Source: Porphyromonadaceae bacterium W3.11
GTDB lineage: Bacteria > Bacteroidota > Bacteroidia > Bacteroidales > Porphyromonadaceae
Reading direction: 5' to 3'
Assembly: GCA_030434245.1 (NCBI GenBank)
Contig: JAUISX010000007.1
Coordinates: forward strand, 1 to 45,018
DNA length: 45,018 nt
A program made the position numbers and the translations under genes. Positions 5,379 to 43,507 of the stretch are shown in pieces; within the stretch, counting starts at the first letter, position 1, and each line of letters begins with the position of its first letter. Under the pieces are notes generated by a model. It worked only from the letters and a program-made list of their open reading frames with translations, was not told the DNA's origin and made no database searches.

Positions 5379-5660
5379 CTTTGTGGCATTTTTGAGTTTC
5401 ATCTGAGTAGTCAGATGAATATTCAAAACAGAGGAAAAATCGTTGTAGAGCCCTGCTTTACAGCGATTTTTCTTGTTTCAGTGACTACCGCTGAATACCA
5501 AAACAGATATTTGGTAGTTAGCAATAGACCACTTTTCTGCTACAGAAATTGCTACAACTTTTAATTGGCTGAAAAATTGTAGCAATGACTACCAAATGAC
5601 CACCATATTGAATACCGTAATATGCTCATATTCAGAAACTTTATTGTGAACTTTGTGGCA
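5378..5660. repeat. 11-bp direct repeat at the ICE/tmRNA junction
   Basis: ACTTTGTGGCA occurs at 5378-5388, beginning at the last base of tmRNA, and again at 5650-5660 upstream of the integrase. Between them lies the inverted pair ATTGCTACAA / TTGTAGCAAT. These could be part of an attachment site and integrase arm-binding sites. The far ICE end is not in the window, so the att core cannot be confirmed. Confidence 0.4.
5435..5475 (+). terminator. Terminator downstream of tmRNA
   Basis: A 13-bp stem (AAAAATCGTTGTA with TACAGCGATTTTT, one G-T pair) encloses an 11-nt loop and runs into T-rich sequence. It lies 57 nt after the tmRNA end, so it probably ends that transcript and separates it from the integrase. 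Confidence 0.65.
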
Positions 5661-5730
5661 GTATTTTGTGTACAAACATTTGAAAAAAGTGTAGCAATAT
5701 AAAATGATGCCACTAAAAAGATTTTAGAGT

Positions 5731-6978
5731 ATGAAGAAGCAATTCAAGGTGTCCTACTACCTACGCTCAAATTATGAGAACAAAGAAGGAAAAAATCCAA
5801 TCATGGTCCGTATCATCTTAGATGGTGAAATGGTTAATCTTGGCTCTAGCCAGCTATCTGTAAAGAAAGCCCTTTGGAGTAATTCCACAAGCAGAGCTAA
5901 AGGTAGAACGGCAGATGCTATAGCATTAAATGCTTCCCTTGATGCCCTTACAGCCTCATTGTATGAACTATTTAGAAAACATGAGTTTGAAGACTATCTC
6001 ACTGCAGAGTCATTCAAAACGTTGTTCCTAGGAGAAGAAAAAGAGTTCTCTACTATTCTCCCTGTCTTTGACAAATACATTGAGAGTATTAAGGAGAAGG
6101 TCGGTGTAAGCTTGAGAAAAGGAAGTTTCCAAAAGTACACTATCATTAGACGCGACTTTGTAGAGTTTCTAGAGACCAAGTATAAGAGAAAAGACTTAGG
6201 ATTACTTGAGTTTAATTCTGTCGTACTGAAAGACTTTGAATTATTCTTAGTCACAGAGAAAAACATCTCTCATAATACTGCTCAGAAAAAACTAAAGGGC
6301 ATAAAGACAATGGTGATATATGCTCAGAAGCGTGGGATTATTCAACACGATCCATTTATGGACATTCGCTTTCATTACAAACCTGTTGATCGGGGCTTTC
6401 TTACTGAGGAAGAAGTAATAAAAATTTCAGACAAAGATCTGTCAAGTCTTCCAAGGCTGGAGCTTGTAAGGGATATATTCCTTTTTTCTTGTTTTACAGG
6501 TCTTGCTTACATTGATGTTTCTAACCTTACTCCCGAACATATTGTATCTCTTGATGGCAATGATTGGATTATGACCAAACGGCAGAAGACTTCGACCACA
6601 TCTAATGTGCTTCTTTTGGATATACCTAAAAGCATCATCCAAAAGTACGTGGGACAAACTAAGAGAAAAGGTAAACTCTTCCCTATTCTCAGCAATCAAA
6701 AGATGAATTCATATCTCAAAGAGATTGCTGACATTTGTGGCATAAAGAAGAACCTAACCTTTCATATTGCCCGTCATACTTTTGCTACTCTTTGCCTGAG
6801 CAAAGGAGTCCCTGTAGAGTCCGTTTCCAAAATCCTAGGACACACAAACATTAAGACAACACAGATTTATGCACGCATTACTAATAAGAAGATTGAGAAG
6901 GATATGATGGAACTTGCGGATAAGATTGGCGACTTTTCATTGAACAATGTACCACCTTTAGAGGCTGCAACAAGATGA
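5731..6978 (+). CDS. Tyrosine recombinase (ICE integrase)
   Basis: A 415-residue site-specific recombinase of the Bacteroidota type, with an N-terminal arm-binding domain, a SAM-like core-binding domain (~105-200) and a C-terminal catalytic domain. Visible catalytic residues are Lys286, His345-x-x-Arg348, His371 and the nucleophile Tyr380. The first catalytic arginine position reads FTGLAYID, so it is Ala259. IntDOT of CTnDOT also lacks this arginine. It lies 353 nt after tmRNA and points away from it, the usual arrangement for an ICE integrated at a tmRNA 3' end. It overlaps the next ORF by 4 nt (ATGA), so the two are translationally coupled. Confidence 0.92.
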   Translation: MKKQFKVSYYLRSNYENKEGKNPIMVRIILDGEMVNLGSSQLSVKKALWSNSTSRAKGRTADAIALNASLDALTASLYELFRKHEFEDYLTAESFKTLFLGEEKEFSTILPVFDKYIESIKEKVGVSLRKGSFQKYTIIRRDFVEFLETKYKRKDLGLLEFNSVVLKDFELFLVTEKNISHNTAQKKLKGIKTMVIYAQKRGIIQHDPFMDIRFHYKPVDRGFLTEEEVIKISDKDLSSLPRLELVRDIFLFSCFTGLAYIDVSNLTPEHIVSLDGNDWIMTKRQKTSTTSNVLLLDIPKSIIQKYVGQTKRKGKLFPILSNQKMNSYLKEIADICGIKKNLTFHIARHTFATLCLSKGVPVESVSKILGHTNIKTTQIYARITNKKIEKDMMELADKIGDFSLNNVPPLEAATR

Positions 6979-12034: not shown

Positions 12035-12466
12035 CTAATCCTCTCTCTTACTATTGAAATCAAATGAAAACTGTTCCATTTGTCCGTGGTTGTTCTCGAC
12101 GTAGATGTCAATCGTCTGGCGGTCGGTGGAGAGTGAGGTGTAGTAGAGCCTGAACTCCTCTTTCGTGAGCGGATAGCGGTCGTTGGGTTGGAAGACCGTG
12201 CCGTTGTCCATTTTCAGCGTTCCTTTGCCATCGGACTGGAAGTAGCGGATGGTGTAGCGAGTGCCGGCAAAGTTGCCCTCGCGTTTGAGCGTGCAACGGA
12301 TTTCAGCGGTTTCTCCCTTTGCTATACTCTTTTGCACGGGCATCGCTTCGACAGTGAACGGATAAGACTGTCGCACATCCAAATCCCGATTGCAAGCAGA
12401 TAGACAAAACACGCCAAGGGCAAGTACACCCATTACCCATATTGAACTTAAAATCTTCTTTTTCAT
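12035..12466 (-). CDS. traQ: Conjugal transfer protein TraQ (DUF3872)
   Basis: A 143-residue lipoprotein (lipobox LSACN, Cys25). The mature domain fits the DUF3872/TraQ family of Bacteroidales conjugative transposons, with the motifs GETAEIRCTLKREGNFAGTR and a segment YPLTKEEFRLYYTS. TraQ is the last structural gene of the CTnDOT-type transfer operon, and its exact role in the mating apparatus is not defined. Here it starts 11 nt after TraO. TraP, which usually lies between TraO and TraQ, is absent. Confidence 0.85.
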   Translation of the reverse strand: MKKKILSSIWVMGVLALGVFCLSACNRDLDVRQSYPFTVEAMPVQKSIAKGETAEIRCTLKREGNFAGTRYTIRYFQSDGKGTLKMDNGTVFQPNDRYPLTKEEFRLYYTSLSTDRQTIDIYVENNHGQMEQFSFDFNSKRED

Positions 12467-12477
12467 CGTTATTAGTT

Positions 12478-13065
12478 TTAGAGGTTAAACTTGAAGCCTG
12501 CCGAGAGTGCAGGACGGAAATGATGCACATCTGAGCCAAAGAGCAACCGCCCTTGGGCTTTGAGGACGAAGAGGATATTATCCGTAAGGAATAGTTCCAC
12601 CGAGGTATGCAAGGCACCGCCATAGACGAAGCGTGAGCGGTCGAGCAGCGTTGCGCCATCGGGCAGTAACTTCTTGTCCTCGTTCAGTTCCTCATAACCG
12701 CAGAGTGCAGAAAGCCCCAAGTAGCCGAAGATATTCTTGCCCCTATCCGATAGAATCGGGTGCATATACCCGAGGTGCAACAAGGCATCACGCAGTGGAA
12801 CATTGTAAGAGCGATAAGTCAACCCTTGCTGCTCATATTCCGCCAAGAGAAAAGCGTAGTTCGCCCGCTTGAAGTAGTGTGCGAACTCAAGACCTGCCCC
12901 AAAACTCTCCTTTGCGAATAGTCTCTCCCCCTTGATAATCGGAATAGAGCCGACCAGCTCAACGCTATTTTGCCTAGGGATTAGTCGCTGTGCGTACGAT
13001 GGCATAGTAGCAACCATAGCCACCATCACGCAGACCATCATGGATAACCATCTCTTCATCACCAC
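12478..13065 (-). CDS. traO: Conjugal transfer protein TraO
   Basis: A 195-residue protein with an N-terminal signal peptide (cleaved after SYA, about residue 25). It has alternating hydrophobic segments typical of a small outer-membrane beta-barrel, ending in LSAGFKFNL. Length and order match TraO of Bacteroides conjugative transposons. Its start overlaps the end of TraN by 7 nt, and an alternative ATG lies at 13059. It is expected to be part of the outer-membrane portion of the mating channel, which is inferred from the barrel-like pattern. Confidence 0.87.
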   Translation of the reverse strand: MVMKRWLSMMVCVMVAMVATMPSYAQRLIPRQNSVELVGSIPIIKGERLFAKESFGAGLEFAHYFKRANYAFLLAEYEQQGLTYRSYNVPLRDALLHLGYMHPILSDRGKNIFGYLGLSALCGYEELNEDKKLLPDGATLLDRSRFVYGGALHTSVELFLTDNILFVLKAQGRLLFGSDVHHFRPALSAGFKFNL

Positions 13066-14012
13066 TTCAGTTTAAGGTTATCAATCTTCTTAGTGAGCAA
13101 AAGGTCTTCAGGCTCCACATAGAAAGTGAGTGTGCGACTGCCGTTTCGCTCGTAGAGCGTCACTTCAAGCTGCTTATCCTCCGATAGTGTGAACTGCTCC
13201 AAGGCAAAGACTATTCTCTCAGAGCGTCCCGCCCCAATCCACATCACCTGATGAAAGGCACGTAGTGGTTGTAGCATTCGCTCTTGTATAGCTGTATGCT
13301 TCGCCACCTTCTTGTCCACCACCTTGAACGTGATAAAGTCCACCTCATACGGCATATTAGACTCATTATCCATACGGACGTGGAAGTAAAGCAACCCATT
13401 GTGGGCATATAAGCCACGAAGTAAGAAGCGCATCCCGAATTGCTTCGCTCCAACATGCTTGATGGTTCGCTTATCATTTTGGTAGATGCTCTTCATAATC
13501 AGCTTAACCAATATGGGCGACTCACTTCCCAGCTCTTTGAAGTAGATGTCCGCACGATTGCTCGGCAGTCTTCCCTCCGTAGGAGATAGAAAGTCCTTCA
13601 TCTCAATACTGAGCATCTCAGGTTCATCTGCATACTTCACATTAAAACTATAGAAAGATCCATCATCGCAGATTACCGAGAGATTACTTTCTCTTTCAAA
13701 ATCCCTCACAGCTGCTTTCACCCTCAATACATTCTCAGCACCTCCCCCCTCATCTGCTTTCCCAGCTACCAAGGCATTACTGCCCAAGTCCACATAACGG
13801 ATAGGTGCAGGAAATATCAAGTGCACCGTCTTCTCAAAGCTCACTTCCAATCCATACGGCACCACCACACGTCCTGCAGGGATAGCACGGCTCATCCCTT
13901 GGTAAAGGTCACCCGTAGAGAGCATATAGCTCTGTCCATTATCTTGTGCCATAGCACCCAAGCTCATACCAAGAGCCAATACCCCCATTAACATTACTTT
14001 CTTCATATTCAT
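13059..14012 (-). CDS. traN: Conjugal transfer protein TraN
   Basis: A 317-residue protein with a signal peptide cleaved near residue 22 (GAMAQ). The sequence contains VHLIFPAPIRYVDLGS and an RVKAA segment, a VirB9-like beginning that recurs in TraN of Bacteroidales elements. By analogy it forms part of the periplasmic/outer-membrane core complex with TraM (VirB10-like) and TraO. It lies between TraM (15 nt upstream) and TraO (overlapping), so translation is probably coupled. The gene is complete. Confidence 0.88.
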   Translation of the reverse strand: MNMKKVMLMGVLALGMSLGAMAQDNGQSYMLSTGDLYQGMSRAIPAGRVVVPYGLEVSFEKTVHLIFPAPIRYVDLGSNALVAGKADEGGGAENVLRVKAAVRDFERESNLSVICDDGSFYSFNVKYADEPEMLSIEMKDFLSPTEGRLPSNRADIYFKELGSESPILVKLIMKSIYQNDKRTIKHVGAKQFGMRFLLRGLYAHNGLLYFHVRMDNESNMPYEVDFITFKVVDKKVAKHTAIQERMLQPLRAFHQVMWIGAGRSERIVFALEQFTLSEDKQLEVTLYERNGSRTLTFYVEPEDLLLTKKIDNLKLKW

Positions 14013-14027
14013 ATTTTTGATTAGTTA

Positions 14028-15332
14028 TTATTTCGATTGAACTAAGTAGAGCTGATGCCCACCCTTTAATCGCACCTTAATCTCACGAAGCTTCTTTTGT
14101 AGTAGCTGACTCGCCCCCTGCATTGCCCCTCTTGCCAGCTCTGATATGATCTGGTCTTTGGCAGAGGAAGCAAATGTGAAGGAAGTACCCATGGAGCCAC
14201 CAGCCGTTGCAGCGGTCTCCTTGAGTGCTTGCACCTCATCAATGCCAGGAATGGCGATACCCTCCTGACCATCAAGGTCAAAAGCTGAGAGTGAGACTGA
14301 GAAGATACGTCCACCCGTCTCCACCGACCGCACATGAAGCCTCATCCTATTCCCCTCTATTTTCGCTTGAGCCACTAGCGGAGCATTGCGAGAAAGCCGA
14401 ATACCTTGGAAGTGTGCATCCTCCGAGAGTCTAAGCACCACGAAGCTCCCCTCCTGTAAGGTAGTAGTCTTATCGACCACCACCTTTAGGGTGTTTCTGG
14501 GTACTACCTCCTTAGCCACGGTCCCGACAGAGAAAAATCCCAGATTTCGCTCACTTGCCCCATAGTCAGCGATAAATGCAGAGTCCGTCATCGGCTGTTC
14601 CAGCATAGAGATCACTGGCTTTCGCTCTGCCAATACCTCCATCTGAGGAAGATCAGTTGCAGGTGCATTTGTTGTCAAAGGTTCACTATTCACCGACTGC
14701 CCATCAACCAGAGGACGCCCATAGGCAAGAGTCTTATCAGCAGTCCCAACTGACGGCATATACTTCGCAGCCATTTGGTAGCTCTTTTCCATCAGAGCCA
14801 ACTGTCGCTCCTCCTCGCTTGCGATGTCCTGCTCTCGATTGTTCAGCTCCTCACGAAGACTCTCTATTTCTCCTCGGAGATAATCAATTTCTTCTTCGTA
14901 GTAGTTCTCCGCCTCATTAAAGGAAGCCAGCAACTGGTTATTTCTTTCATACTGCTGAACCGACCCCGCTATATCACCACCCCAAGCCTCTGAAGTGGAA
15001 GCTGAGTCTTCCCTTTGACCTTTTAGAGGGTATGGAGATGTATCCTCCTGATCAAAGTAATCTGAGAGCCGACCAATCTCCTTGCGTTGCTCTACTACAC
15101 TCTCCTCATAACTTGACAGTTCATAGGCTTTTAGCTTATTCTCTTCAAGTTGATCTACTGAAGCTTGCGGAACCATATCATTCAGCCCTGACTGCTCCAT
15201 AGCCAGCTCTCTCTCTGACGGCTTAAAAATAAACCACATTGAGAAAGCAAAGAAGAGCCCCAACCCCGAGAAAATAAGCCACTTTTTGACTTGCTCTTTT
15301 TGCTTCGTTGAAAGTCCTTTATTCTTATCCAT
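14028..15332 (-). CDS. traM: Conjugal transfer protein TraM
   Basis: A 434-residue protein with a short cytoplasmic N-terminus, one membrane segment (~16-36), a charged coiled-coil stretch (~125-185) and a C-terminal VirB10-like domain (~270-425). In that domain FSVGTVAKEVVPRNTLKVVVD and GQEGIAIPGIDEV are typical of TraM of CTnDOT-like elements. It is expected to span the periplasm as the scaffold of the mating channel. TraL ends 2 nt upstream and TraN starts 15 nt downstream. The gene looks intact. Confidence 0.9.
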   Translation of the reverse strand: MDKNKGLSTKQKEQVKKWLIFSGLGLFFAFSMWFIFKPSERELAMEQSGLNDMVPQASVDQLEENKLKAYELSSYEESVVEQRKEIGRLSDYFDQEDTSPYPLKGQREDSASTSEAWGGDIAGSVQQYERNNQLLASFNEAENYYEEEIDYLRGEIESLREELNNREQDIASEEERQLALMEKSYQMAAKYMPSVGTADKTLAYGRPLVDGQSVNSEPLTTNAPATDLPQMEVLAERKPVISMLEQPMTDSAFIADYGASERNLGFFSVGTVAKEVVPRNTLKVVVDKTTTLQEGSFVVLRLSEDAHFQGIRLSRNAPLVAQAKIEGNRMRLHVRSVETGGRIFSVSLSAFDLDGQEGIAIPGIDEVQALKETAATAGGSMGTSFTFASSAKDQIISELARGAMQGASQLLQKKLREIKVRLKGGHQLYLVQSK

Positions 15333-15334
15333 AG

Positions 15335-15613
15335 TTATTTATCTGCTAAATACTCCATCGATCCTATTATCAATAGTGAGTCCAATAGTATTTCCTCCAC
15401 TGGCGTCTCAATTATCGTATCCCTTGCCACAACGATCGGCTGCCAACTATTCTTGACTATAAAAGGCTTAATCAGCATATAAAGTGATAGAAGCAAGTAG
15501 ATGCCGCATACACTCCACAGAATCATCCTTCTTTGCTTTTGGGAAAGTTGTTCACATCCTTTATGGACAGATACCAAAACTCTTTTCCACCCTCTATTGA
15601 CCACACTATTCAT
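15335..15613 (-). CDS. traL: Conjugal transfer protein TraL (DUF3989)
   Basis: A 92-residue protein with one clear membrane segment (LWSVCGIYLLLSLYMLIK). It is basic on the N-terminal side, in agreement with an N-in topology. Size, membrane pattern and position between TraK and TraM identify it as TraL (DUF3989). The start overlaps the TraK stop by 4 nt, which implies translational coupling. Its role in the apparatus is not known in detail. Confidence 0.85.
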   Translation of the reverse strand: MNSVVNRGWKRVLVSVHKGCEQLSQKQRRMILWSVCGIYLLLSLYMLIKPFIVKNSWQPIVVARDTIIETPVEEILLDSLLIIGSMEYLADK

Positions 15614-16233
15614 CGTTTTATCGTCTGAATGTCTCTATTCTCACGCACCACGAACTGTTCCATCAGGAAACCCTGTGGGTTATTATCCGAACGCACCGAG
15701 TTTTGGAGCGTACAGCTCGTCACCAAGCTACGCTCAGTGATGTTGCTCTGCCGTACGATGTACTGTCGACCAAAGGTTACTACCTCATAGGGATAAACCT
15801 CAAAGTTGCACTGGATAGAATCCAAAACCACACGTTGATTGATGTTTCCCGAGATAATCCGATTGTAATAACCTTTCTCGGCAAGGTCTTTGTAGTAGTT
15901 AAATGCTGATTTATCGCACAGCATAAAGGCTCGTGACATATTCTCCTCGATGGACTCCTTGTCCGGAGCAACCGTAAAGAAGAGTTCGTGAAAGCGTCTC
16001 ACATGCTCCCTTGCCTCTACTGGTCTATTGGTAGCAGCATCCTGACTCAGTGCCAAGATGAGCGACTTCCCATTGTCCAGTACATACACCTTCTCACGCT
16101 GTTCACGCGCAAAGGAGTACGAGCTATAAACGACATACCCACACACTCCAAGACAAAAGACCACAAAGAGTATCGCATAGAGCCGTATCTGTTTGAACGA
16201 ACTCTCTATATTAGTTAATGACTTAAATTCCAT
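15610..16233 (-). CDS. traK: Conjugal transfer protein TraK
   Basis: A 207-residue protein with one N-terminal membrane helix (~18-38) and a periplasmic domain of the VirB8/NTF2-like kind. It starts MEFKSLTNIESSFKQIRLY, contains FELFFTVAPD-like and NQRVVLDSI segments, and ends in a basic tail. TraK of Bacteroides conjugative transposons has this size and layout. It is thought to be an inner-membrane assembly factor of the mating channel, by analogy with VirB8. It overlaps TraL by 4 nt and follows TraJ with a 51-nt gap. Confidence 0.9.
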   Translation of the reverse strand: MEFKSLTNIESSFKQIRLYAILFVVFCLGVCGYVVYSSYSFAREQREKVYVLDNGKSLILALSQDAATNRPVEAREHVRRFHELFFTVAPDKESIEENMSRAFMLCDKSAFNYYKDLAEKGYYNRIISGNINQRVVLDSIQCNFEVYPYEVVTFGRQYIVRQSNITERSLVTSCTLQNSVRSDNNPQGFLMEQFVVRENRDIQTIKR

Positions 16234-16284
16234 ATCTGTTTAGCTTGTTGTTATTTATTTCAAGCCCCCTCAGGGGTTGGAGGC

Positions 16285-17319: not shown

Positions 17320-17334
17320 ATCAAATAATCATCA

Positions 17335-20612: not shown

Positions 20613-20741
20613 ATTGTTGTGTAATGAAATGGTTTTTACAAATAATCCCTAAGGTACTATCCCCCTTAATGGCAAAGTTATCAAATTTCAATGAGAAATC
20701 TCATCAAAAACCTGAATATTGCATTTAATTGAAGTTTTTAT

Positions 20742-20749
20742 TACTTTTG
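20742..20749 (+). promoter_or_regulatory. Candidate -7 box for the 20819 lipoprotein gene
   Basis: TACTTTTG fits TAnnTTTG, 69 nt before the start codon. A TTG-containing -33 region lies about 20 nt upstream. Confidence 0.4.
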
Positions 20750-20818
20750 GATTAATCTTTATGGAGTTCTGTGCGTCATAGTATCAGAAAATGGATATAA
20801 ACCAATTTACTTTGAGTT

Positions 20819-21331: not shown

Positions 21332-21368
21332 TGTTTTGTTGATTAATTGTTTTTAATGTGTTGTTGTG

Positions 21369-21419: not shown

Positions 21420-21422
21420 GAT

Positions 21423-29411: not shown

Positions 29412-29455
29412 TCTTTATTGCAAGGGTTTTACTATAACTTTAAATGAAATTCTAA

Positions 29456-31255: not shown

Positions 31256-31263
31256 TGCTGATT

Positions 31264-34020: not shown

Positions 34021-34047
34021 TGATTAATATTGATAATGATTTATAAG

Positions 34048-35004
34048 ATGAAAATAAAATATATGCTATCGATAGTGCTTTCAATGGTGGCACTATCAGG
34101 ACTTTCTCAGGTTGGTCGTCCTATACCTGTCCTTCAGGGTAACCCCGACGCTCGGTCGGCTGCCATGGGAGGTGTGATGGGTGCAAAAACTGACCGTATG
34201 TATCTATTCGTGAGTCCAGGTTCGATATTTTTTCAGGATAAAAAGCTTCAAGTAGATTTGAGCTCAGAATTTTTCCCTAAGCTCGAGGGGATTGAAGGTC
34301 GAACTATGCAGTATAATTTTGCAGGAGCATACAATTTTGGTACCGATGCAGTATTCCTTGGATATAGGTATCAAGGTGGCACAAGGATTCCTTTGATTAG
34401 CGAGGGTATGGATAATAAGGAATTAATAGTCAAGCCCTTTGATTGGTCTCTTGATGCTGGATATGCGAAGAAGTTAGGAGATAACTTCTCTATCCATGCG
34501 TCTGCCAATTTAATTGCTTCATGGATAGGAAAGGGAGCATACACAGGTTCAATCACATTCGGATGGTATTATCAGAATGAAAAAAAGCTCGGGCGTACCC
34601 CAGCTATATTTAGCTTTGGAATGAGGTTAGCTGATTTGGGAGTTCCTGTCAAGTATAAATCTGTAGAGAATAGCATCGCAGTACCTTCTTCATTGCAAAT
34701 TGGTAGTGGGCTGGATATGCAGCTTTCTGCTAAGAGCCAATTGAATTTTGTAGGAGGTGCCCGCTATTTCGTACTACCAAAGGAGGCTTCGATGCTCTTA
34801 TTGGGTGTAGGTACAGAGTATGGCTTCAATGATATGCTCTTTGCCCGTGCGGGATTTGAGTATGGCCAGAGGTCGCAGTCCTTTGGTACATTTGGATTGG
34901 GGGCCAAATACCAAGGCTTCCATCTGGATGCAGCCTACAGATTATCTACATCTAGGGATTTCGGGCTAAATACGTTACTCATTTCCTTAGGATACAGTTT
35001 CTAA
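34048..35004 (+). CDS. PorV/PorQ-like outer-membrane protein
   Basis: A 318-residue protein from the ATG at 34048, which gives a clean signal peptide (ALSGLSQ); an upstream in-frame ATG at 34030 lengthens it. The mature protein starts GRPIPVLQGNPDARSAAMGGV, the hallmark of the PorV/PorQ FadL-like barrel family, and ends in ISLGYSF with a terminal aromatic. PorV shuttles T9SS cargo to the attachment complex, and PorQ belongs to the same complex. Co-transcription with a T9SS protease, 27 nt downstream, suggests a dedicated partner. It may alternatively be the organism's general PorQ paralogue. Confidence 0.8.
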   Translation: MKIKYMLSIVLSMVALSGLSQVGRPIPVLQGNPDARSAAMGGVMGAKTDRMYLFVSPGSIFFQDKKLQVDLSSEFFPKLEGIEGRTMQYNFAGAYNFGTDAVFLGYRYQGGTRIPLISEGMDNKELIVKPFDWSLDAGYAKKLGDNFSIHASANLIASWIGKGAYTGSITFGWYYQNEKKLGRTPAIFSFGMRLADLGVPVKYKSVENSIAVPSSLQIGSGLDMQLSAKSQLNFVGGARYFVLPKEASMLLLGVGTEYGFNDMLFARAGFEYGQRSQSFGTFGLGAKYQGFHLDAAYRLSTSRDFGLNTLLISLGYSF

Positions 35005-35129
35005 AGATTTGATTTTAATTATTGCTGTCCGGTAAAGTTTTATCGGGTATAAAAGTTAGGGGCTGTTTTCCATAATTGGAAATCAGCCCCTATTGTCTTA
35101 TCTTTAGTGTTCCAAAACAAATATAAGAC

Positions 35130-36351
35130 ATGAGCAAAAGTACATATTTTACCGGACAGCCGGTATTCGCACAAGTGTTAAAGTTGATAGATAGGGCAAA
35201 GGTCGAGCAAATAAGTAAAGACACGCCAGGTAGTGAAGTGTATGTCAAGAAGTTAGACGGATATACCCACCTGGTAACCATGCTCTTCGGGGGTTCTTCG
35301 TCATTATGACTCATTGCGGGAATTGGAGATTGGTCTGAAAGCAGAAGTCCATAAATTTCAGCACCTTGGAATAGACTATGTGGCGAAGCGTAATACTCTT
35401 TCAGAAGCGAATATGCGACGACCTCAAGAGTTCTTCGCACAGGTGTATGCTTACCTTCTGGAGCGTTACAAGCGATTTTTAGCGGACAGCCGAGCAAAAA
35501 GAGAAGAAAAGGATTGGGAGAGAATGCTATACCTGATGGACTCCACCACTATAACTCTCTTTGACAATATTTTAAAAGGTGTGGGCAGACACCCTAAGAG
35601 TGGCAAAAAGAAGGGAGGAATGAAAGTTCATACCCTCTTAAAGTCCCAAGTGGGTGTGCCTATGGTCGTCCAGCTGACGAGTGCAGCCAAGCATGACCAT
35701 TATCTGCTCAAGGAAGTTCATCTGCCCAAAGACAGCGTACTAGCGATGGACAGAGCATACATAGACTATGCCCAGTTCCAGCGACTTACAGAGGAGGGTG
35801 TCTGCTACGTCACGAAGATGAAGAAAAACCTCCGTTACACGGTACTTTCATCGGTTATCAGTGTCAATGAGTATGGGTTGGCAGAATGCAGGGATGAACG
35901 TATTCTCTTCGAAAAAGGGGAGTTAAAGCACGAATCTAGAAGGGTAGAGATCTGGAGCAAGGGGGCGAAGAAGTCTGTGGTACTTCTCACCAACAATTTT
36001 GAGCTCTCCACAGAGGATATTGCAGAGATTTATCGTAGAAGGTGGGCCATTGAGACCCTTTATAAGCAGTTGAAGCAGAACTTTCCGCTCCACTTCTTCT
36101 ATGGAGATAGCGTCAATGCCATCCAAATACAGACTTGGGTGGTGCTGATTGCCAACCTCCTCTCTACCATCATACAGCGTATGATTAAAAGGCACTGCTC
36201 TTTCTCACAAATCGTCGCCATGTTGCGTATCACACTCATGTACTACACCGATTTCCTCGGATTTATGGAGAATCCAAACAAAGAAGAGCAAATTATCATG
36301 GCAGAACGGGCTAATTCGCCACCCCAATACCCTCTTTTTCCCGAGCTGTAA
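35130..36351 (+). pseudogene. IS4-family transposase (DUF4372 + DDE domain), frameshifted
   Basis: The N-terminal part (35130-35309) reads MSKSTYFTGQPVFAQVLKL and on to LFGGSSSL, then stops. The remainder (35314-36351) reads on from RHYDSLRELEIGLKAE in another frame. Reading four rather than five G at 35289-35293 restores a continuous LFGVLRHYDSLREL. The cause is therefore a one-base insertion in a G run, a sequencing error, or possibly a frameshift site. The DDE part is intact, with LYLMDSTTITLFDN, VLAMDRAYIDY and YRRRWAIETLYKQLKQNFPL. The restored protein is about 407 residues, a normal length. The element is probably inactive as sequenced. Confidence 0.85.
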
Positions 36352-36357
36352 CAAAGG

Positions 36358-36396
36358 GGGGGGCTTGCTTTTTCAGTTTTAAAAGCAAACCCCCGA
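36358..36396 (+). terminator. Hairpin after the IS4-type transposase
   Basis: GGGGGCTTGCTTTT pairs with AAAAGCAAACCCCC with one mismatch. It lies directly after the transposase stop, inside the element. Confidence 0.5.
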
Positions 36397-36450
36397 TATT
36401 ACTATGCTATCTAACCTTCAAAAGGTCATTTTAAACTTTTACCGGACAGC

Positions 36451-36520
36451 AATATTTCCTTATTGACCGTGAATTGTGTTCGCTTCTCAAACACATTCAA
36501 TGCGAGAAACCTTTTCTGAT
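36451..36520 (-). pseudogene. DUF3408/TraB fragment between the two insertion sequences
   Basis: If the IS256-type element and one target copy are removed, the frame of the 38293 gene continues here without shift: EYQK is followed by RFLALNVFEKRTQFTVNKEI. It is then cut by the end of the IS4-type element. This 20-codon piece looks like the start of the DUF3408 core. The rest of the gene is missing. Confidence 0.65.
36513..36520. repeat. Target site duplication, left copy
   Basis: TTTCTGAT lies immediately left of the IS256-type element and is identical to 37958-37965. The two copies show that this insertion is a simple one. Confidence 0.85.
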
Positions 36521-37957
36521 GATACTGTCCCCAAAAAGTGTGTAAGTCCCAAGAATGTTATCTTTGAAAAGTTAAAAACAAAAGATAAACAAGAAGATGA
36601 GACTTACACAAATGCAATTTAAGGAAATTCTATCAAACGTGATGACAGAGCCAAATGGAGTTGGTCGTTTAATGGAGTTAATCATCGAAATAGCGATGCA
36701 AGGGGAGAGGGAACTGTATAAAGAAGATAGTGGCGATGTGAGCAATGGATACCGCCCCCGTCGCATCTTTGCGAGTGGTAATATGCTAGAATTACGAGTA
36801 CCCCGAACTCGGCAGCAGGGCTTCATGCCCTTGATTTTAGGCGTTCTCAAAGATCAAGAGAAAGAGATGGGAGAACTAGCAGGTTATCTATATAGCTGCG
36901 GTAATACGATGGAGGATATCTCTGGAGTATTCGAGCGTTTGTATGGTAAACGTTATAGTACGAGTCAAATCAATCGTCTCTCCTTATCAACCCAAGAAGC
37001 AGTAGAAGAGTGGCGTCAAAGACGTCTACCGAGGACTTTAGAGGCACTTGTTATCGATGCTACATATCTTCCTGTACGGAGAGGAGAAAGTGTGAGCAAG
37101 GAGGCATTCTTTGTGGTGATGAGTTTAGATAGCGAAGGACGTCGAGACATCGTTGGTGTCTATAATAATCCAACAGAGGGGAGTGGTATCTGGGGAGAGT
37201 TTTTTGAGGACCTAAAAAGCAGAGGATTAGAGGAGGTGGGATTGATTATTTCAGATGGTCTGAATAACATTGAAGAGGTTGCTCGAGAGCACTTTACAGA
37301 AGTAGACGTACAGCTTTGTACCGTTCATTTACAGCGAGAAATAACTCGAAAGATACGCCCTCGAGATAAGTCAGCCATCGCAAGTGATCTACAGGAGGTC
37401 TTTAGTAAAGACGGCTCAAGAAGCTCACCTTTAGATGGCCTAGAGAGCTTTAAAAACTTTGCGTTCAGATGGCGTAAGAGCTATCCTTTTCTCACAAAAA
37501 TAGCTAACGGTCAGAGGATAGAGTATTACTTCACATACCTAAAATACGACGTCAGTGTTCGCAAGTACATTCATAGTACTAACTGGATAGAACGCTTCAA
37601 TAGACAGGTAAAGAAAGGGGCTCGATATAAATGTGCATTACCTAGCGTAGAATCCGCTCTACACTTGATAGGTAGTATTGCAATCAATGCAACCTATCTG
37701 AAGAAAAGAATAGGAGATCTAACTCTTGGACTTAGGAAGAACAATGAAAAGTAAATAACAACAATGTGCTTTATTTTCCAACACAAAGATATCAACCTAA
37801 AAGAATACGGCAAGGCGGTGTCTCCGCGGTGCTACGACAGCCTTGCCTTAATTCTTTATTGGTCTATCTTTAATGTTTATGGAAAACAAAGCGAAAAAAT
37901 ATGTAGGTTTGCTTTTCAGAGACGCATTCTGGCGTACACACTTTTGGGGACACTACC
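36521..37957 (+). mobile_element. IS256-type insertion sequence
   Basis: A 1437-bp element. The ends (GATACTGTCCCCAAAAAGTG on the left; GGTAGTGTCCCCAAAAGTG read inward from the right) are inverted repeats sharing TGTCCCCAAAA and GTGTGTA. It is flanked by an exact 8-bp duplication TTTCTGAT (36513-36520 and 37958-37965), the size expected for IS256. It has inserted into the DUF3408/TraB gene of the ICE. A non-coding ~200-bp right part holds a GGCAAGGC/GCCTTGCC stem-loop (37797-37859). Confidence 0.9.
36597..37754 (+). CDS. IS256-family (Mutator-type) transposase
   Basis: A 385-residue transposase of normal length with a complete reading frame. The DDE residues are visible as Asp154 (LVIDATYLP), Asp220 (LIISDGLNNIEEV) and Glu332 (STNWIERFNRQVKKGARYK). 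The C-H-x-x motif QLCTVHLQREI follows the second Asp, as usual in the family. It starts 76 nt inside the left inverted repeat. With intact ends and a target duplication, the element is probably still mobile. Confidence 0.93.
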   Translation: MRLTQMQFKEILSNVMTEPNGVGRLMELIIEIAMQGERELYKEDSGDVSNGYRPRRIFASGNMLELRVPRTRQQGFMPLILGVLKDQEKEMGELAGYLYSCGNTMEDISGVFERLYGKRYSTSQINRLSLSTQEAVEEWRQRRLPRTLEALVIDATYLPVRRGESVSKEAFFVVMSLDSEGRRDIVGVYNNPTEGSGIWGEFFEDLKSRGLEEVGLIISDGLNNIEEVAREHFTEVDVQLCTVHLQREITRKIRPRDKSAIASDLQEVFSKDGSRSSPLDGLESFKNFAFRWRKSYPFLTKIANGQRIEYYFTYLKYDVSVRKYIHSTNWIERFNRQVKKGARYKCALPSVESALHLIGSIAINATYLKKRIGDLTLGLRKNNEK

Positions 37958-38293
37958 TTTCTGATACTCGGAAAAGTCTGCTTTTCTTTGAGTAACACTT
38001 CTCTTCAATTGAGGGGTCTTCTTTGTTTTCTCTTGAGCTATGGCATCAACACCTACTTCATCCTCCACTTCCTCTGGTATCCCAGTAGGAATCATGGAAT
38101 CCTCTATTCCTTCCTCAATGCTCAATGAAGAATTTACTGAGTCTTGTTGTTCATCTTGATATTTGAAAAACACTTCATTAGGCGGGTCAAAAAATGGGCT
38201 CTTATCAGTCGTGTGAGGACTACTACCCATCTCTCCCATTTCCTTCAATTTCCTTTCCAATAGAGCATCTCTTTCTTCTTTGATTGTTCCCAT
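37916..38293 (-). pseudogene. DUF3408/TraB-like conjugation protein, 3' end replaced by IS
   Basis: The ORF has 125 codons, of which the last ~13 (SVPKSVYARMRL and stop) come from the IS256-type end. The remaining N-terminal part is acidic and low in complexity, ending KRSVTQRKADFSEYQK. This is the usual variable region in front of the C-terminal DUF3408 domain. The gene begins 3 nt after TraA in the same direction, as TraB does in CTnDOT-type elements. Because the DUF3408 domain is missing, the protein is presumably non-functional. Confidence 0.7.
37958..37965. repeat. Target site duplication, right copy
   Basis: TTTCTGAT lies immediately right of the IS256-type element and matches 36513-36520. 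Confidence 0.85.
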
Positions 38294-38296
38294 AAA

Positions 38297-39097
38297 CTAT
38301 TCTGCACTCTTGGTGACTAATCCTATTCGTTGTAATAATTCAGGCACCCACTCATCGAGACCTGTACCAATACGCAGCTTGGGTTGAGGGGGAAGGTAAG
38401 AGCATCGAAAAACCTCTTTGACACCTGCCTGACCAAGCTCTCGACTGAATTTTACTGAACTATATAGCTGAGCATCAAAGAGAGACAATCCTATTTCTTT
38501 GACGTACTTTGTATATTCATCTATGATTAAGCTCCTAGCTCTACGATCCACCTTATTCCAGACGAGAATGATATCTTGAATGCGTACACTCGAAGTAGAC
38601 ACGCCAATGTCTCTAATCGTCTTGGCATAAGCGAGGGAAGAAGTCAATGATTGAACATCTGCTTCGATGGGACAGATGATAAAATCCATCTGAATGGAGA
38701 GTTCTAATAGCTCTTTGGTGCTGGAATGCCCAGGGAAGTCAAAGATGACCATGTCAGGAAGTGATGAGCCCATTCCGTTAAGGGTGCTATTCACTAACCT
38801 CAAAGCATCCTTGGGTTCTGCTGCGATAATTCGATACGATGGTCTCTGAAATCTTTCAAAGTGTGCATGAATGCTTTCGGCGATCTGGGGGTCTTCTTCA
38901 ATGAGGGCACGGTCTCTATCTCTCAATTTCTTAAACGATGTCTGAGTGCCATCACAATCAACCACAATAAGGTCAATACCCTTTTCGTAGTAAAGTATTG
39001 CGGCGAGTACTTCTGCTAATGTACTCTTGCCTACCCCTCCTTTTTGAGAGGCAAAACCAAGATAAATTGGTTTGTAGTACTTGTTCTCTTTCTCCAT
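38297..39097 (-). CDS. traA: ParA-family ATPase (TraA)
   Basis: A 266-residue Walker-type ATPase. It has the deviant Walker A motif KGGVGKST (19-26) and LIVVDCDGTQTS, and DMVIFDFPGHSSTKEL supplies the second aspartate region. In Bacteroidales ICEs the ParA-like TraA gene faces away from mobA, as here. It may work in ICE maintenance or positioning before transfer, though the role is not settled. The 600-bp space to mobA contains a repeated AT-rich motif that could be its partition site. The gene is intact. Confidence 0.9.
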   Translation of the reverse strand: MEKENKYYKPIYLGFASQKGGVGKSTLAEVLAAILYYEKGIDLIVVDCDGTQTSFKKLRDRDRALIEEDPQIAESIHAHFERFQRPSYRIIAAEPKDALRLVNSTLNGMGSSLPDMVIFDFPGHSSTKELLELSIQMDFIICPIEADVQSLTSSLAYAKTIRDIGVSTSSVRIQDIILVWNKVDRRARSLIIDEYTKYVKEIGLSLFDAQLYSSVKFSRELGQAGVKEVFRCSYLPPQPKLRIGTGLDEWVPELLQRIGLVTKSAE

Positions 39098-39700
39098 AAC
39101 TCCATGAATTCTATAAATGTTACGACTTACTTTGCATGTCTTGATTCTTATATACTCTAACTCGAGTTCTCGAGTTCTCGATTACTTAATTAAGTGCTTA
39201 AATAGTTAATCAATAGGCTAATTAGTTAATCACTTAGTTATTCAGCATATTAGTCAATGGGGCAATCAAGTTGGTAACAACCCCATGGGCTAATTGATGA
39301 AGTTCGTTATTGGTCAATCTATTCATCGGTTATTTAACCACTTAATTATTCCATCAAATCATTACTTGATGACTTAATTACACCACAAATTAAGCGACTA
39401 ATTAAGTAGCTATTTACTACTCGGGAGCTATAGGGAAGTAGCGAGAAAACTCGTGAAAGTAGTTAATATTGAATGGATTATTTATCCCTTGTACCTTTGT
39501 CACTACAAGGATTTGAGACCTATTGGAGGGAGCTGGAGCCCCCGAAGAGATTGCCCGCAAGGCAGACTCTTCATACCCCTATCATCTTGATATTGGCAAG
39601 GTGTGTTTTTGTCCGACAAACTCCCGTTTCGCCGACAAAAAACCTTGCCCCACAGGGGAGAGAAATCACTCCAAAGTCGTGATTAGAAGAGATAAGAGAT
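39098..39700. promoter_or_regulatory. Intergenic region with AT-rich repeats and probable oriT
   Basis: The left half (39161-39410) has a tandem CTCGAGTT repeat (39161-39180) and about six copies of a (C/G)ACTTAATTA-like motif in both orientations, near 39184, 39218, 39350, 39371, 39388 and 39399. Also present is an ATGGGG...CCCCAT inverted repeat (39257-39286). The right half has a long imperfect inverted repeat, GGCAAGGTGTG.../...AACCTTGCC (39595-39649), just before mobA. That is where oriT lies in related elements. A partition site plus oriT is the best reading. The short ORFs here look spurious. Confidence 0.55.
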
Positions 39701-40084
39701 ATGGAAAAGAAAAATGTAAGATGGGATCGCTGGGATACTCGTATCCTTGACCCAAAAGAGCAGCTAAAATTGATAGATATGTATCGTCGTTCGGGAGCTA
39801 AAACGAAGTCTGATTTCGTTAGGGCAAGACTCTTTGGTGAGGAGTTTAAGGTGGTCACAGTAGATAAATCTGCCGTGGATTATTATCGTAAACTCTCCGA
39901 ATTAACCTCTCAAATTCACAAGATTGGTGTGCTATATAATCAGGCTGTTCGGGCAATTAATAGCTACCATTCAGTCAAGACTGCCCAGATATTACTCGAA
40001 AAATTGGTGGAGCTATCGGGGCAGATTATTGCTTTGCAAGAGCAGACAGTAGAACTCACCATTGACTATCGGAAGAAGAGATGA
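39701..40084 (+). CDS. mobA: Mobilization protein MobA (relaxosome accessory)
   Basis: A 127-residue basic protein with an N-terminal ribbon-helix-helix-like region (KSDFVRARLFGEEFKV) and a helical C-terminus. It matches the MobA/MbpA class of Bacteroidales elements, which binds oriT and helps the relaxase. Its stop overlaps the start of mobB by 4 nt (ATGA), so translation is coupled. It lies directly downstream of the candidate oriT. Confidence 0.85.
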   Translation: MEKKNVRWDRWDTRILDPKEQLKLIDMYRRSGAKTKSDFVRARLFGEEFKVVTVDKSAVDYYRKLSELTSQIHKIGVLYNQAVRAINSYHSVKTAQILLEKLVELSGQIIALQEQTVELTIDYRKKR

Positions 40085-41361
40085 TTGCGAAGATTTCTGC
40101 AACAGCCAATCTCGGGGGTACACTTGGCTACAACTTTAGGAAAGTGGAGCAGATGGAGGCTACTGTACTATTGGCAAATGGACTCTATCAGCAGAGTGGT
40201 CAGCCCTACACGATGGAGCAGGTTTTGGAGGATATGCAGTTGGCTATTCCAGATAGGTGCAGAACGAAGAAGGTGGTCTTTCACTGTTCGCTCAATCCAC
40301 ACCCTGATGAGCATCTGGACGATGATACTTTGAGGGCGATTGCCCAGGAGTATATGGAGGAGCTGGGGTATGGGGAGCAACCTTATATCGTCTTCAAGCA
40401 CTCGGACATCGCTCGAGAGCATATCCACATCGTTTCACTTCGAGTGGATAGCGGGGGACAAAAGGTAAACGACAGATTTGAAAAGTGGCGAAGTAAGCGG
40501 ATTACTACTGCCTTAGAAGAGAAGTATAGTCTGATATCGAGCTCTAAGAAGTCAGTAAAAGAGGAGAAACCTGCATTGCCTATGGCGGTGGATATAAATC
40601 AAGGGGATATCAAGCAACAGATAGAGGGTGTGATGCAGTTTGTACTGAAGCATTACACTTTTCAATCGCTTGGTGAACTCAATGCAGCACTTGCCCCATA
40701 TCAACTGAGTGCTGAAGAGGTAAAGCGGGAGTATCGAGGCAAACAGTATGATGGCGTGGTTTATGCTCCAACAGATAGCAAGGGTAATAAAGTAGGAACA
40801 CCAATACATGCTTCAGAGATTGGGAGAGGTGTGGGGTATGATGCTCTAGAGAGGCGAATGGAGCAGTCTAAGTCTTTAATTGCTACACACCTTGGAACTG
40901 TGCGTGGTCGTCTCTTGGAGGTGATGCGCTCATCTCCTCAGACGATAGAGGAGCTTCAGAAAGGATTAAAGCAGGTCGGTTTGCGAGCTTTTATCCGAAA
41001 AAATGAGGGCGGACGGCTCTATGGCATCACCTGTATAGACGACAAGGAGGGTATTGTAGTCAATGGCTCACGCTTAGGAAAAGGCTACTCTGCTAATGTC
41101 TTTAATACTTACTTTGCTAATCCAGCTCTCAATCCTTTTCTCAATGAGACTCTATACCGCATTCCTTTAGCCCCTAACCCTCCTATGGAGGACTTAATCA
41201 ATGAAAATCCCCCTTTAGGGGGCTGGGAGGAGAGTGATGTAATAGGAGAACTAATTGATGAGCTACCAGTAAATAGAGGTAACGATGATTGGAAGGAGGC
41301 AGCTTGGCAACGCAAACTCCGCCGTCAGAATCGTCCTCGCTTAAAGGGTAAGAGAAGATAA
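40081..41361 (+). CDS. mobB: Relaxase MobB
   Basis: A 426-residue relaxase/mobilization nuclease. The N-terminal ~130 residues have the metal-binding histidine cluster HSDIAREHIHIVSLRVD (His107, His114, His116) and a possible nucleophilic Tyr17 in GGTLGYNF. It nicks oriT and stays attached to the transferred strand. The C-terminal part (~175-420) is of unknown fold. A short proline-rich segment (NPPMEDLINENPPLGGWEE) near residue 370 looks low-complexity. It is complete and lies between mobA and mobC. Confidence 0.9.
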   Translation: MIAKISATANLGGTLGYNFRKVEQMEATVLLANGLYQQSGQPYTMEQVLEDMQLAIPDRCRTKKVVFHCSLNPHPDEHLDDDTLRAIAQEYMEELGYGEQPYIVFKHSDIAREHIHIVSLRVDSGGQKVNDRFEKWRSKRITTALEEKYSLISSSKKSVKEEKPALPMAVDINQGDIKQQIEGVMQFVLKHYTFQSLGELNAALAPYQLSAEEVKREYRGKQYDGVVYAPTDSKGNKVGTPIHASEIGRGVGYDALERRMEQSKSLIATHLGTVRGRLLEVMRSSPQTIEELQKGLKQVGLRAFIRKNEGGRLYGITCIDDKEGIVVNGSRLGKGYSANVFNTYFANPALNPFLNETLYRIPLAPNPPMEDLINENPPLGGWEESDVIGELIDELPVNRGNDDWKEAAWQRKLRRQNRPRLKGKRR

Positions 41362-41503
41362 TGGTTTGTGCGTGCCTTGACATTGCAGAGCAGGTGCAGT
41401 GCAAGGCGATAAGAGTGAGGCTGAAGGGAGCATACAAAGGTATGTGACCAAAGTCAAATCTCGCAAGCAACGCAGTAATGTACCTGCTATACGATGTCAA
41501 GAT

Positions 41504-43507
41504 ATGGGACAAGAAGATGATTTGAGAGGCTTAGGCAAAGTGATGGACTTTATGAGGGGGATTTCTATTCTCTTCGTCATCATCAACTGCTACTGGTTTT
41601 GCTATGAGGCATTTCGCGAGTGGCACTTCACCATCAGTGTGGTAGATACCATTCTGATGAACTTTCAGAGGACGACGGGGCTATTCAACTCAATACTCTG
41701 GACGAAGCTCTTTAGTGTGCTGTTCCTTGGACTTTCATGCTTGGGAACACGAGGAGTTAAGGAGGAGAAAATTACTTGGGCTAAGATTTGGACGGTATTA
41801 GCCATTGGATTTGTATTCTTCTTCCTTAATTGGTGGCTATTAGCTCTGCTCTTTAGTAGTGTAGGGAATGCTTCACTTTATATCTTCACACTCTCTGTCG
41901 GATATATTTGCCTACTGATGGGTGGAGTCTGGATGAGCAGATTGCTAAAGAACAACCTAATGGACGATGTCTTCAACATCGAGAATGAGAGCTTTCAGCA
42001 GGAGACTAGGCTAATGACCAATGAGTATTCGGTCAATCTGCCCACTCGTTTCTATTACAAGAAGAAATGGAACAATGGTTGGATCAACATCGTTAACCCA
42101 TTTCGTGCTTCTATGGTGCTGGGGACTCCCGGGTCGGGTAAGTCGTATGCAATTGTCAATAACTACATCAAGCAACAGATTGAGAAAGGTTTTGCTATGT
42201 ATATCTACGACTATAAGTTCCCCGACCTTTCGGAGATTGCTTACAATCACCTGCTCAATCACATTGATGCTTACCCACTGAAACCGCAGTTCTTCGTGAT
42301 TAACTTCGATGACCCTCGCAAGTCGCATCGCTGCAATCCTATCAATCCTGCTTTTATGACGGACATCTCGGATGCGTATGAGAGTGCCTATACCATTATG
42401 CTTAACCTCAACCGAACTTGGATACAGAAGCAGGGAGACTTCTTTGTGGAGTCACCAATCATCCTACTCGCTGCTATCATCTGGTATCTGAAGATTTACG
42501 AGAATGGAAAGTACTGCACCTTTCCACACGCAATTGAGTTCCTCAATCGACCCTATGCTCAGATATTCCCGATACTGACTTCATACGATGAGCTTGCTAA
42601 CTACCTCTCTCCCTTTATGGACGCTTGGGAGGGTGGAGCTCAAGACCAGTTGCAAGGACAGATAGCCAGTGCCAAGATACCACTCTCTCGCATGATTTCT
42701 CCAGCACTCTACTGGGTGATGACTGGTGATGATTTCTCACTTGACATCAATAACCCAAAAGAGCCAAAAGTATTAGTGGTGGGTAATAATCCCGACCGTC
42801 AAAACATCTACTCTGCAGCTCTTGGTCTGTACAATAGCCGCATCGTAAAGCTCATCAATAAGAAGCACCAGCTGAAGAGTTCAGTGATTATAGATGAGTT
42901 GCCAACCATCTACTTTCGTGGACTGGATAACCTTATCGCCACAGCCCGAAGTAACAAAGTGGCAGTGTGTTTGGGATTTCAGGACTTCTCCCAGCTCACC
43001 CGTGACTATGGGGATAAGGAAAGCAAGGTGATACAAAACACGGTGGGCAATGTATTCAGTGGTCAAGTAGTAGGAGAAACAGCTAAGACTCTCTCAGAGC
43101 GTTTTGGTAAAGCACTCCAGAAACGCCAGTCTATGACCATCAACCGCAACGATAAGTCCACCTCTATCTCCACACAGATGGATAGCCTTATCCCTGCCTC
43201 CAAAATTAGTAACCTCACGCAAGGGATGTTTGTAGGTGCTGTCTCCGACAACTTTGATGAGCGTATAGAGCAGAAGATATTCCACGCTGAGATAGTGGTA
43301 GACTCCGCAAAGGTCTCTGCTGAAATGAAGCAATACCAGCCAATCCCCGAAATAGCCACTTTCCAAAACGAAGATGGCTCCGATAATCTCCAAGAGACCA
43401 TAGAAGCCAACTATAAGCGTGTCAAACAAGAAGTGCTATTCCTCGTTGACAGTGAAATTACCCGCATCAAATCCGACCCTTTACTCGCTCACCTCATCAA
43501 AGAGTAA
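41504..43507 (+). CDS. mobC: Type IV coupling protein MobC (TraD/TraG-like, YWFCY domain)
   Basis: A 668-residue protein from the ATG at 41504. An open upstream GTG adds 35 unlikely residues, whereas this start gives the usual MGQEDDLRGLGKVMDFMRG beginning. The N-terminal part has a YWFCY motif and about four membrane segments to ~140. The ATPase part has Walker A GTPGSGKS (207-214, Lys213) and the Walker B-like SSVIIDELPT. It carries the relaxase-DNA complex to the mating channel. It is the third gene of the mob operon and intact, so this part of the ICE may still be usable with another ICE's channel. Confidence 0.92.
   Translation: MGQEDDLRGLGKVMDFMRGISILFVIINCYWFCYEAFREWHFTISVVDTILMNFQRTTGLFNSILWTKLFSVLFLGLSCLGTRGVKEEKITWAKIWTVLAIGFVFFFLNWWLLALLFSSVGNASLYIFTLSVGYICLLMGGVWMSRLLKNNLMDDVFNIENESFQQETRLMTNEYSVNLPTRFYYKKKWNNGWINIVNPFRASMVLGTPGSGKSYAIVNNYIKQQIEKGFAMYIYDYKFPDLSEIAYNHLLNHIDAYPLKPQFFVINFDDPRKSHRCNPINPAFMTDISDAYESAYTIMLNLNRTWIQKQGDFFVESPIILLAAIIWYLKIYENGKYCTFPHAIEFLNRPYAQIFPILTSYDELANYLSPFMDAWEGGAQDQLQGQIASAKIPLSRMISPALYWVMTGDDFSLDINNPKEPKVLVVGNNPDRQNIYSAALGLYNSRIVKLINKKHQLKSSVIIDELPTIYFRGLDNLIATARSNKVAVCLGFQDFSQLTRDYGDKESKVIQNTVGNVFSGQVVGETAKTLSERFGKALQKRQSMTINRNDKSTSISTQMDSLIPASKISNLTQGMFVGAVSDNFDERIEQKIFHAEIVVDSAKVSAEMKQYQPIPEIATFQNEDGSDNLQETIEANYKRVKQEVLFLVDSEITRIKSDPLLAHLIKE

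What the first reader, a model, noticed from the sequence alone, without database searches (positions are those of the whole stretch)
5379..43507. One ICE cut in two by a chromosomal block, in collinear order
Left part: integrase ... TraQ-O-N-M-L-K-J-I-G, with traG cut at about codon 300. Right part: TraB-TraA leftward and mobA-B-C rightward. Laid end to end these give the normal CTnDOT-type order and strands, missing only the traG 5' end, TraE/TraF and the TraB 3' end. In their place is ~15.5 kb of housekeeping and envelope genes. Possible causes: an IS-assisted replacement; two rearrangements involving two ICE copies; or an assembly join. The result is a probably immobile ICE that could still be mobilised by another, carrying cobalamin, selenium and protease genes.
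Basis: partly seen in the sequence, partly recalled or inferred. Interest (0 to 1): 0.75.

Follow-up and report, generated by a model that had tools for sequence, protein, structure and literature searches.

The report
ICE with chromosomal block inside it
A bacterial mobile element has lost part of its DNA-transfer machinery, and in its place carries about 15 kb of ordinary chromosome genes that resemble but do not match the cell's own copies; it looks like a real, one-off rearrangement, not a new kind of system.

Summary
Window 5367-45018 is the left part of one CTnDOT/CTnPg1-type ICE inserted in the tmRNA gene. Its transfer operon is cut inside traG (residue 335 of 839) and traB. The 2.66 kb that a sister ICE of the same genome carries there is replaced by 15.5 kb of chromosome-type genes (cobJ-'cbiC, selD, desulfurase-like, yedF, mnmH, serine dehydratase, two BACON lipoproteins, a T9SS-tagged subtilase, a PorV-family protein) plus an IS. 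New here: the window is a whole contig of a 9-contig draft whose contig ends overlap by 127 bp; both att sites can be found (13-bp tmRNA-end repeat); a sister ICE with the uninterrupted genes sits at tRNA-Asp; the missing tra piece turned up nowhere else except in other ICEs, so this was replacement with loss. The block's cob, sel and sda genes duplicate genes elsewhere in the genome at only 66-76% DNA identity, so it is not a shuffled local piece; most likely it came from a related species not among the held genomes. Junctions: up to 6 bp microhomology (traG/cbiC) on the left, an IS end on the right. Best mechanism: IS-anchored replacement by incoming linear DNA, or a similar IS-plus-illegitimate event. 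Ordinary parts, unusual combination.

The parts
4975..5379 (+). tmRNA (ssrA) gene, the integration target
   Evidence: ARAGORN; Rfam RF00023
5367..5379 (+). attL core, 13-bp CCTCCATCTCCAC; same 13 bp at C1:15535-15547 taken as attR
5731..6978 (+). tyrosine integrase
   Evidence: PF00589/PF13102/PF17293
6975..11842 (.). left accessory genes (ORF6N, DUF1896, unknowns, Big_2 lipoprotein)
12035..17964 (-). TraQ, TraO, TraN, TraM, (K/L region, no Pfam hit), TraJ, TraI
   Evidence: the K/L names are recalled
17984..19501 (-). traG 3' part (residues 335-839 of the C2 copy), P-loop domain kept
19496..19501 (.). left junction; CCAAGC fits both traG and cbiC (up to 6 bp microhomology, donor side inferred from conserved residues)
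19502..35019 (.). inserted block of chromosome-type genes, 15,518 bp
19506..20612 (-). cobJ fused to cbiC, cbiC matching positions 1-112 of the 196 of the CbiC model
20819..21331 (+). small lipoprotein; a similar gene lies in the same place beside cobJ on C4, there cut by an IS256-family element
   Evidence: similarity by eye
21423..25558 (.). selD, cysteine desulfurase-like, yedF (leftward) and mnmH (rightward)
25637..26956 (+). serine dehydratase-type protein (PF03313)
27570..34020 (+). two BACON-domain proteins and a subtilase with T9SS sorting domain
34030..35004 (+). PorV/PorQ-family outer-membrane protein
   Evidence: NF033709 above cut-off
35020..36454 (+). DDE_Tnp_1 IS (PF01609), frameshifted transposase; forms the right junction; ends set by eye
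36455..36520 (-). 66 bp of traB, identical to the C2 copy
36521..37957 (+). IS256-family element (PF00872), target duplication TTTCTGAT at 36513-36520 and 37958-37965
37958..38293 (-). traB 5' part
38297..39097 (-). TraA (ParA-like ATPase; the name TraA is recalled)
39701..43507 (+). MobA, MobB relaxase, MobC coupling protein
38209..44890 (.). 6,682 bp without a difference from the sister ICE on C2; one difference at 44891, then the 127 bp shared with C2 and C8

Best explanation
A CTnDOT/CTnPg1-type ICE (here ICE-2) inserted in the 3' end of the tmRNA gene of a genome that also holds a sister ICE (ICE-1, at tRNA-Asp). Later, 15.5 kb of chromosomal DNA from another lineage, most likely a related species not among the held genomes, replaced 2.66 kb of its transfer operon. 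The likely route is incoming linear DNA (natural transformation or conjugal chromosome transfer) pairing at an IS copy on one side and joining illegitimately at a short microhomology inside traG/cbiC on the other. Shown: the structure in the assembly, the loss of traG 1-334, DUF4133, DUF4134, the 273-aa gene and the traB end, the IS at the right edge, both att repeats, the sister ICE. Inferred: foreign origin, direction and mechanism. ICE-2 should be unable to build its own transfer channel but keeps int, mob genes and att ends, so it could move only with help from ICE-1 or another ICE.
For: Uninterrupted sister copy on C2 defines what is missing. att repeats pair C7 with C1 and C2 with C3. 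Displaced tra piece found only in ICE-1 itself and, at 79%, in a third ICE (40 of 41 candidates scored). Block genes are 66-76% identical in DNA to the copies on C1 and C4 and 83% (SdaA) or 87% (CobJ-CbiC) in protein, so not a recent local duplication. Left junction with up to 6 bp shared; right junction at an IS end whose other side is traB. Precedents: P. gingivalis exchanges chromosomal DNA by competence and conjugation, and CTnPg1 transfer moved chromosomal genes too (PMC5907639, passages); Bacteroides fragilis ICE-linked chromosomal replacement (PMC5729914, abstract and passages); one-end homologous, one-end illegitimate joining (PMC3240628, abstract and outline).
Against: No donor was found: for gene-length matches the best DNA identity outside the own genome is 73% or less among 37 other family genomes (at E up to 1e-80 and 83 at E up to 1e-20, 7 candidates per genome scored at most). 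SdaA divergence does not say which of the two copies is native. GC differs little for two of the three gene groups compared. An IS copy in traB before the event is assumed, not seen; the only near-identical other copy of this IS in the genome lies elsewhere on C2 (22 of 22 candidates scored). No reads, so the joins rest on one assembly.
Confidence: 0.62

Rival explanations
1. Assembly join: the two ICE halves and the block were stitched together by the assembler and do not lie together in the cell.
For: Draft in 9 contigs; 6.7 kb at the right of the window and all of contig C8 are shared by two ICEs; the two copies of the right-edge IS share one exact 169-bp run (36179-36347), longer than the apparent k of 127; traG of the two ICEs shares exact runs of 152 and 128 bp ending 253 and 124 bp before the junction. 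Long repeats gave misassembled loci in P. gingivalis reference genomes, where CTnPg1 was found in two copies (PMC5771137, passages).
Against: At the left junction itself only 26 bp match the sister ICE exactly, and no held sequence has cbiC beside an ICE; no non-ACGT letters; the IS256 insertion next to the right edge has an exact 8-bp target duplication linking both traB pieces; C6-C7-C8 overlaps are consistent; both att ends found. A 169-bp repeat is normally resolved by read pairs (recalled).
Confidence: 0.15
2. Conservative rearrangement between two ICE copies or two IS copies (inversion or translocation) that moved a local chromosomal segment into the ICE.
For: Many IS copies: 32 further near-full-length IS256-family copies at 97-100% listed (40 of 86 candidates scored, so a lower bound); co-resident ICEs look as if they exchanged sequence (runs of 1,795 and 6,682 bp without a difference beside tracts at 92-99%).
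Against: The cob, sel and sda genes of the block still exist on C4 and C1 as open frames, in divergent form; the missing tra piece has no second home; att pairs are unmixed under the simplest reading.
Confidence: 0.1
3. The block is an old within-genome duplicate or the species' own second copy, captured by the ICE locally; no other species involved.
For: CobJ-CbiC of the block is closer to the C4 copy (87%) than to the three relatives compared (73-74%); the cobJ-lipoprotein neighbourhood looks the same as on C4.
Against: In none of the 11 other genus genomes searched did cobJ and sdaA matches lie side by side (several are drafts of 60-140 contigs); 67% DNA identity over selD-yedF is below the 70-72% that sdaA shows to other genus genomes; SdaA of the block is closer to a genome of another genus (87%) than to the C1 copy (83%).
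Confidence: 0.13

Closest known systems
CTnPg1 / CTnDOT-type conjugative transposons of Bacteroidota
   Same: Same tra gene families in the same order and strands, MobABC, tyrosine integrase, insertion beside an RNA gene
   Different: Transfer operon broken by a 15.5-kb block; tmRNA as target; no test of transfer
ICE-linked chromosomal replacement (Bacteroides fragilis tetQ2 segments; P. gingivalis CTnPg1-associated chromosomal transfer)
   Same: Chromosomal DNA arriving in a cell with ICEs and replacing resident DNA
   Different: In B. fragilis the new DNA replaced its homologue by homologous recombination; here it sits inside an ICE, away from its homologues, with at least one illegitimate join
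Homology-facilitated illegitimate recombination
   Same: One junction possibly homologous (IS), one with short microhomology, recipient DNA lost between
   Different: Homologous step inferred only; donor unknown
Integrative and mobilizable elements / helper-dependent islands
   Same: Keeps integrase, att sites and mob genes but lacks a complete channel
   Different: Arose by breakage of a full ICE; still has most tra genes; dependence not tested

Membership tests
CTnDOT/CTnPg1-type ICE | tyrosine integrase at one end next to the target RNA gene | tested here: met
CTnDOT/CTnPg1-type ICE | tra gene families in the standard order | tested here: met
   by comparison with C2; TraK/L not identified by a family hit
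CTnDOT/CTnPg1-type ICE | complete transfer apparatus | tested here: not met
   traG 5', DUF4133, DUF4134, 273-aa gene and traB 3' absent
CTnDOT/CTnPg1-type ICE | direct att repeats at both ends | tested here: met
   13 bp at window 5367-5379 and C1:15535-15547; chance expectation of the 19-mer with up to 3 mismatches in L032 0.01. Linking C7 to C1 is inferred from this match
CTnDOT/CTnPg1-type ICE | excision and transfer | not testable with these tools
   -
Integrative and mobilizable element | relaxase and integrase present, no complete channel | tested here: met
Integrative and mobilizable element | mobilised by a helper | not testable with these tools
   candidate helper ICE-1 has open frames across the tra region
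Homology-facilitated illegitimate recombination | one junction with short or no homology | tested here: met
   up to 6 bp; donor side inferred
Homology-facilitated illegitimate recombination | other junction in a homologous stretch shared by donor and recipient | tested here: inconclusive
   an IS lies there, donor unknown

The most novel reading that the evidence does not exclude
Foreign chromosomal DNA from another species has turned a self-transferring ICE into a helper-dependent island that can carry a ready set of core metabolic and surface genes (selenium, cobalamin, serine breakdown, T9SS protease with PorV-like partner) between cells, showing a route by which ICE breakage creates mobilizable islands with housekeeping cargo.
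Probability: 0.25. Interest if true: 0.55.

Novelty: new variant of a known kind. Interest (0 to 1): 0.36.

Why it matters
If the structure is real, it is a recent-looking snapshot (the whole tra genes that remain have open frames) of how an ICE loses autonomy in one step while gaining 15 kb of chromosomal genes, in a cell that still holds a likely helper. It would let one test whether broken ICEs move core genes between species. It is also a reminder that selenium and cobalamin genes inside an ICE need not be its cargo by design.

Tried and rejected
Recent local duplication of the block: rejected, 66-76% DNA identity to the C1 and C4 copies. Displaced fragment elsewhere in the genome: not found. 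Donor search: 11 other genus genomes for the whole block and 37 other family genomes for its two halves: no gene-length match above 73%, only short ones higher (up to 83% over 104 bp). The plasmid collection, searched only with window 9000-20500, gave 3 Prevotella records covering 5%. The genome-contig scan with the desulfurase gave 7 loci at 30-35% identity, no use. Empty tmRNA site: the sequence after tmRNA differs in the four relatives aligned, of ten with a tmRNA match, and the chromosome beyond attR on C1 matches a place far from tmRNA in the single-contig relative G002, so the empty site could not be shown by synteny. GC as proof of foreignness: weak. Species: not named by any search; 'Porphyromonas-like' is my recall from gene content. 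Papers: searches; no listing seemed to describe an ICE with this structure, but two queries returned nothing at all and supplements were not searched.
Full report
What the window is. The window equals contig C7 (45,018 bp) of a draft of 2,628,695 bases in 9 contigs, 99.98% complete. Contig ends overlap by exactly 127 bp: C6 end = C7 start; C7 end and C2 end = C8 start; C8 end = C1 start and C3 end, reverse. A constant 127-bp overlap looks like a de Bruijn graph with k=127 (recalled, not from a call). C8 thus has two entries (C7, C2) and two exits (C1, C3). C7 and C2 show no difference from 38209 to 44890 (6,682 bp) and one at 44891, just before the shared end. An assembler may hide rare differences between such near-identical copies, so the identity is that of the assembly.

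Two ICEs, told apart by their att sites. The tRNA-Asp gene on C2 (514294-514368) is followed by a 412-aa frame whose DNA is 69% like the window's integrase. The end of that tRNA gene is repeated on C3 at 406746-406764 with 3 mismatches in 19, the last 14 bp exact (chance expectation 0.00). The tmRNA end at window 5367-5379 is repeated as 13 bp on C1 at 15535-15547 (chance 0.01 for the 19-mer with up to 3 mismatches). Hence the simplest paths: ICE-2 = C7-C8-C1, about 67.1 kb, and ICE-1 = C2-C8-C3, about 55.4 kb (sums). Near both right ends lie a topoisomerase, a 1992-aa methylase/helicase-like protein, a 688-aa ATPase-like protein and an HTH protein (Pfam for the C1 copies; the C3 copies by equal length and by eye). 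This phasing is inferred from the att matches, not assembled.

The break. Against ICE-1, ICE-2 matches at 90% from traQ to traG (12029-19504; 96.4% over the last 2,980 columns) and again from 36455 on. The 2.66 kb between (C2:532601-535261) codes for traG 1-334, DUF4133, DUF4134, a 273-aa protein and the end of DUF3408 TraB. In ICE-2 its place is taken by 19502-36454. A search of the whole genome with the ICE-1 stretch found it only in ICE-1 and, at 79%, in a third ICE on C6 (40 of 41 candidates scored).

The block. 19502-35019 codes for cobJ with a cut cbiC, a small lipoprotein, selD, a desulfurase-like enzyme, yedF, mnmH, a PF03313 serine dehydratase, two BACON proteins, a subtilase with a T9SS sorting domain and a PorV-family protein. 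The genome has another cobJ-cbiC on C4, at the head of what look like further cobalamin genes (by eye; 76% DNA identity), and another selD/desulfurase/yedF, mnmH and sdaA run on C1 (67%, 66% and 74%). BACON-BACON-subtilase-PorV occurs in the same order in genome G004 at 65-68%. No genome of the 11 other genus members or 37 other family members showed a close copy. In the single-contig relative G002 the cobJ and sdaA matches lie about 419 kb apart. Whether the donor DNA was contiguous is unknown. Protein identities: SdaA block/C1 83.4%, block/G034 86.8%, C1/G034 82.2%; CobJ-CbiC block/C4 87.3%, block/three relatives 72.6-74.3%. GC: selD to mnmH 0.484 against 0.434 on C1; sdaA 0.458 against 0.451; cobJ 0.473 against 0.468. 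The divergence is clear; the direction of transfer is not proven.

The junctions. Left: CCAAGC at 19496-19501 fits traG (C2) and, read as cbiC codons for the conserved Arg-Leu-Ala, also the donor cbiC. Since the donor DNA is unknown, the shared length is 'up to 6 bp'. The exact match to C2 there runs from 19476 to 19501. Right: an IS with 26-bp inverted ends (88% complementary), transposase frameshifted, ends where traB begins. The only near-identical other copy found lies on C2 near the integrase, 97-98% identical with internal deletions; the longest exact match between the two is 169 bp, so a mispairing there is a small but real risk. An IS256-family element then splits traB with an 8-bp target duplication.

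Mechanism. A replacement with loss, one join at an IS and one at a few shared bases, is what IS-anchored uptake of linear DNA would leave. I put about 0.4 on that route given the structure, the rest on other IS-assisted or two-step illegitimate events. Literature seen: PMC5907639 (passages), PMC5729914 (abstract and passages), PMC3240628 (abstract and outline), PMC5771137 and PMC5347233 (passages).

Function. With traG's N-terminal part and the two small DUF4133/DUF4134 genes gone, self-transfer is very unlikely (inference; the need for these genes is recalled). int, mobABC and both att sites remain; the whole tra genes listed are open frames. ICE-1 has open frames for the genes that ICE-2 lacks and could help in trans. 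Nothing here tests it.

Verdict. Observation confirmed, interpretation partly supported, parts all of known kinds, the combination unusual.

Noticed in passing
G000 genome: The IS256-family element of window 36521-37957 has at least 32 further near-full-length copies at 97-100% identity (40 of 86 candidates scored); one cuts a lipoprotein gene beside cobJ on C4.
   Followed up: partly
C6:84473-105755 and C6:45845-57859: A third ICE of the same family beside a tRNA-Ser gene, and further partial ICE-like matches.
   Followed up: no
L032:1-2950 against L033:17051-20000: Right parts of ICE-1 and ICE-2 differ by up to 8% in 250-column windows, then run 1,795 bp without a difference: looks like sequence exchange between co-resident ICEs.
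   Followed up: partly
window 1114-2925: Fimbrillin-like gene region 97% identical to C1:99782-101583.
   Followed up: no
window 1045-1103: 59-bp near-perfect inverted repeat whose arms resemble (by eye) the ends of the IS at 35020-36454; a small derivative element perhaps.
   Followed up: no
window 27068-27335: Non-coding stretch matching several places in G004 and single places in G020 and G035 at 71-78%; no Rfam match in the window apart from tmRNA.
   Followed up: partly
G005:C37:24684-24767: Second copy of the tmRNA 3' end in a relative, suggesting tmRNA is a repeated integration site in this genus.
   Followed up: partly
C3:406622-406722 (L033 about 4385-4485): Beyond the ICE-1 right att repeat the sequence again resembles an ICE left end, as if a second element or remnant follows in tandem.
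   Followed up: no
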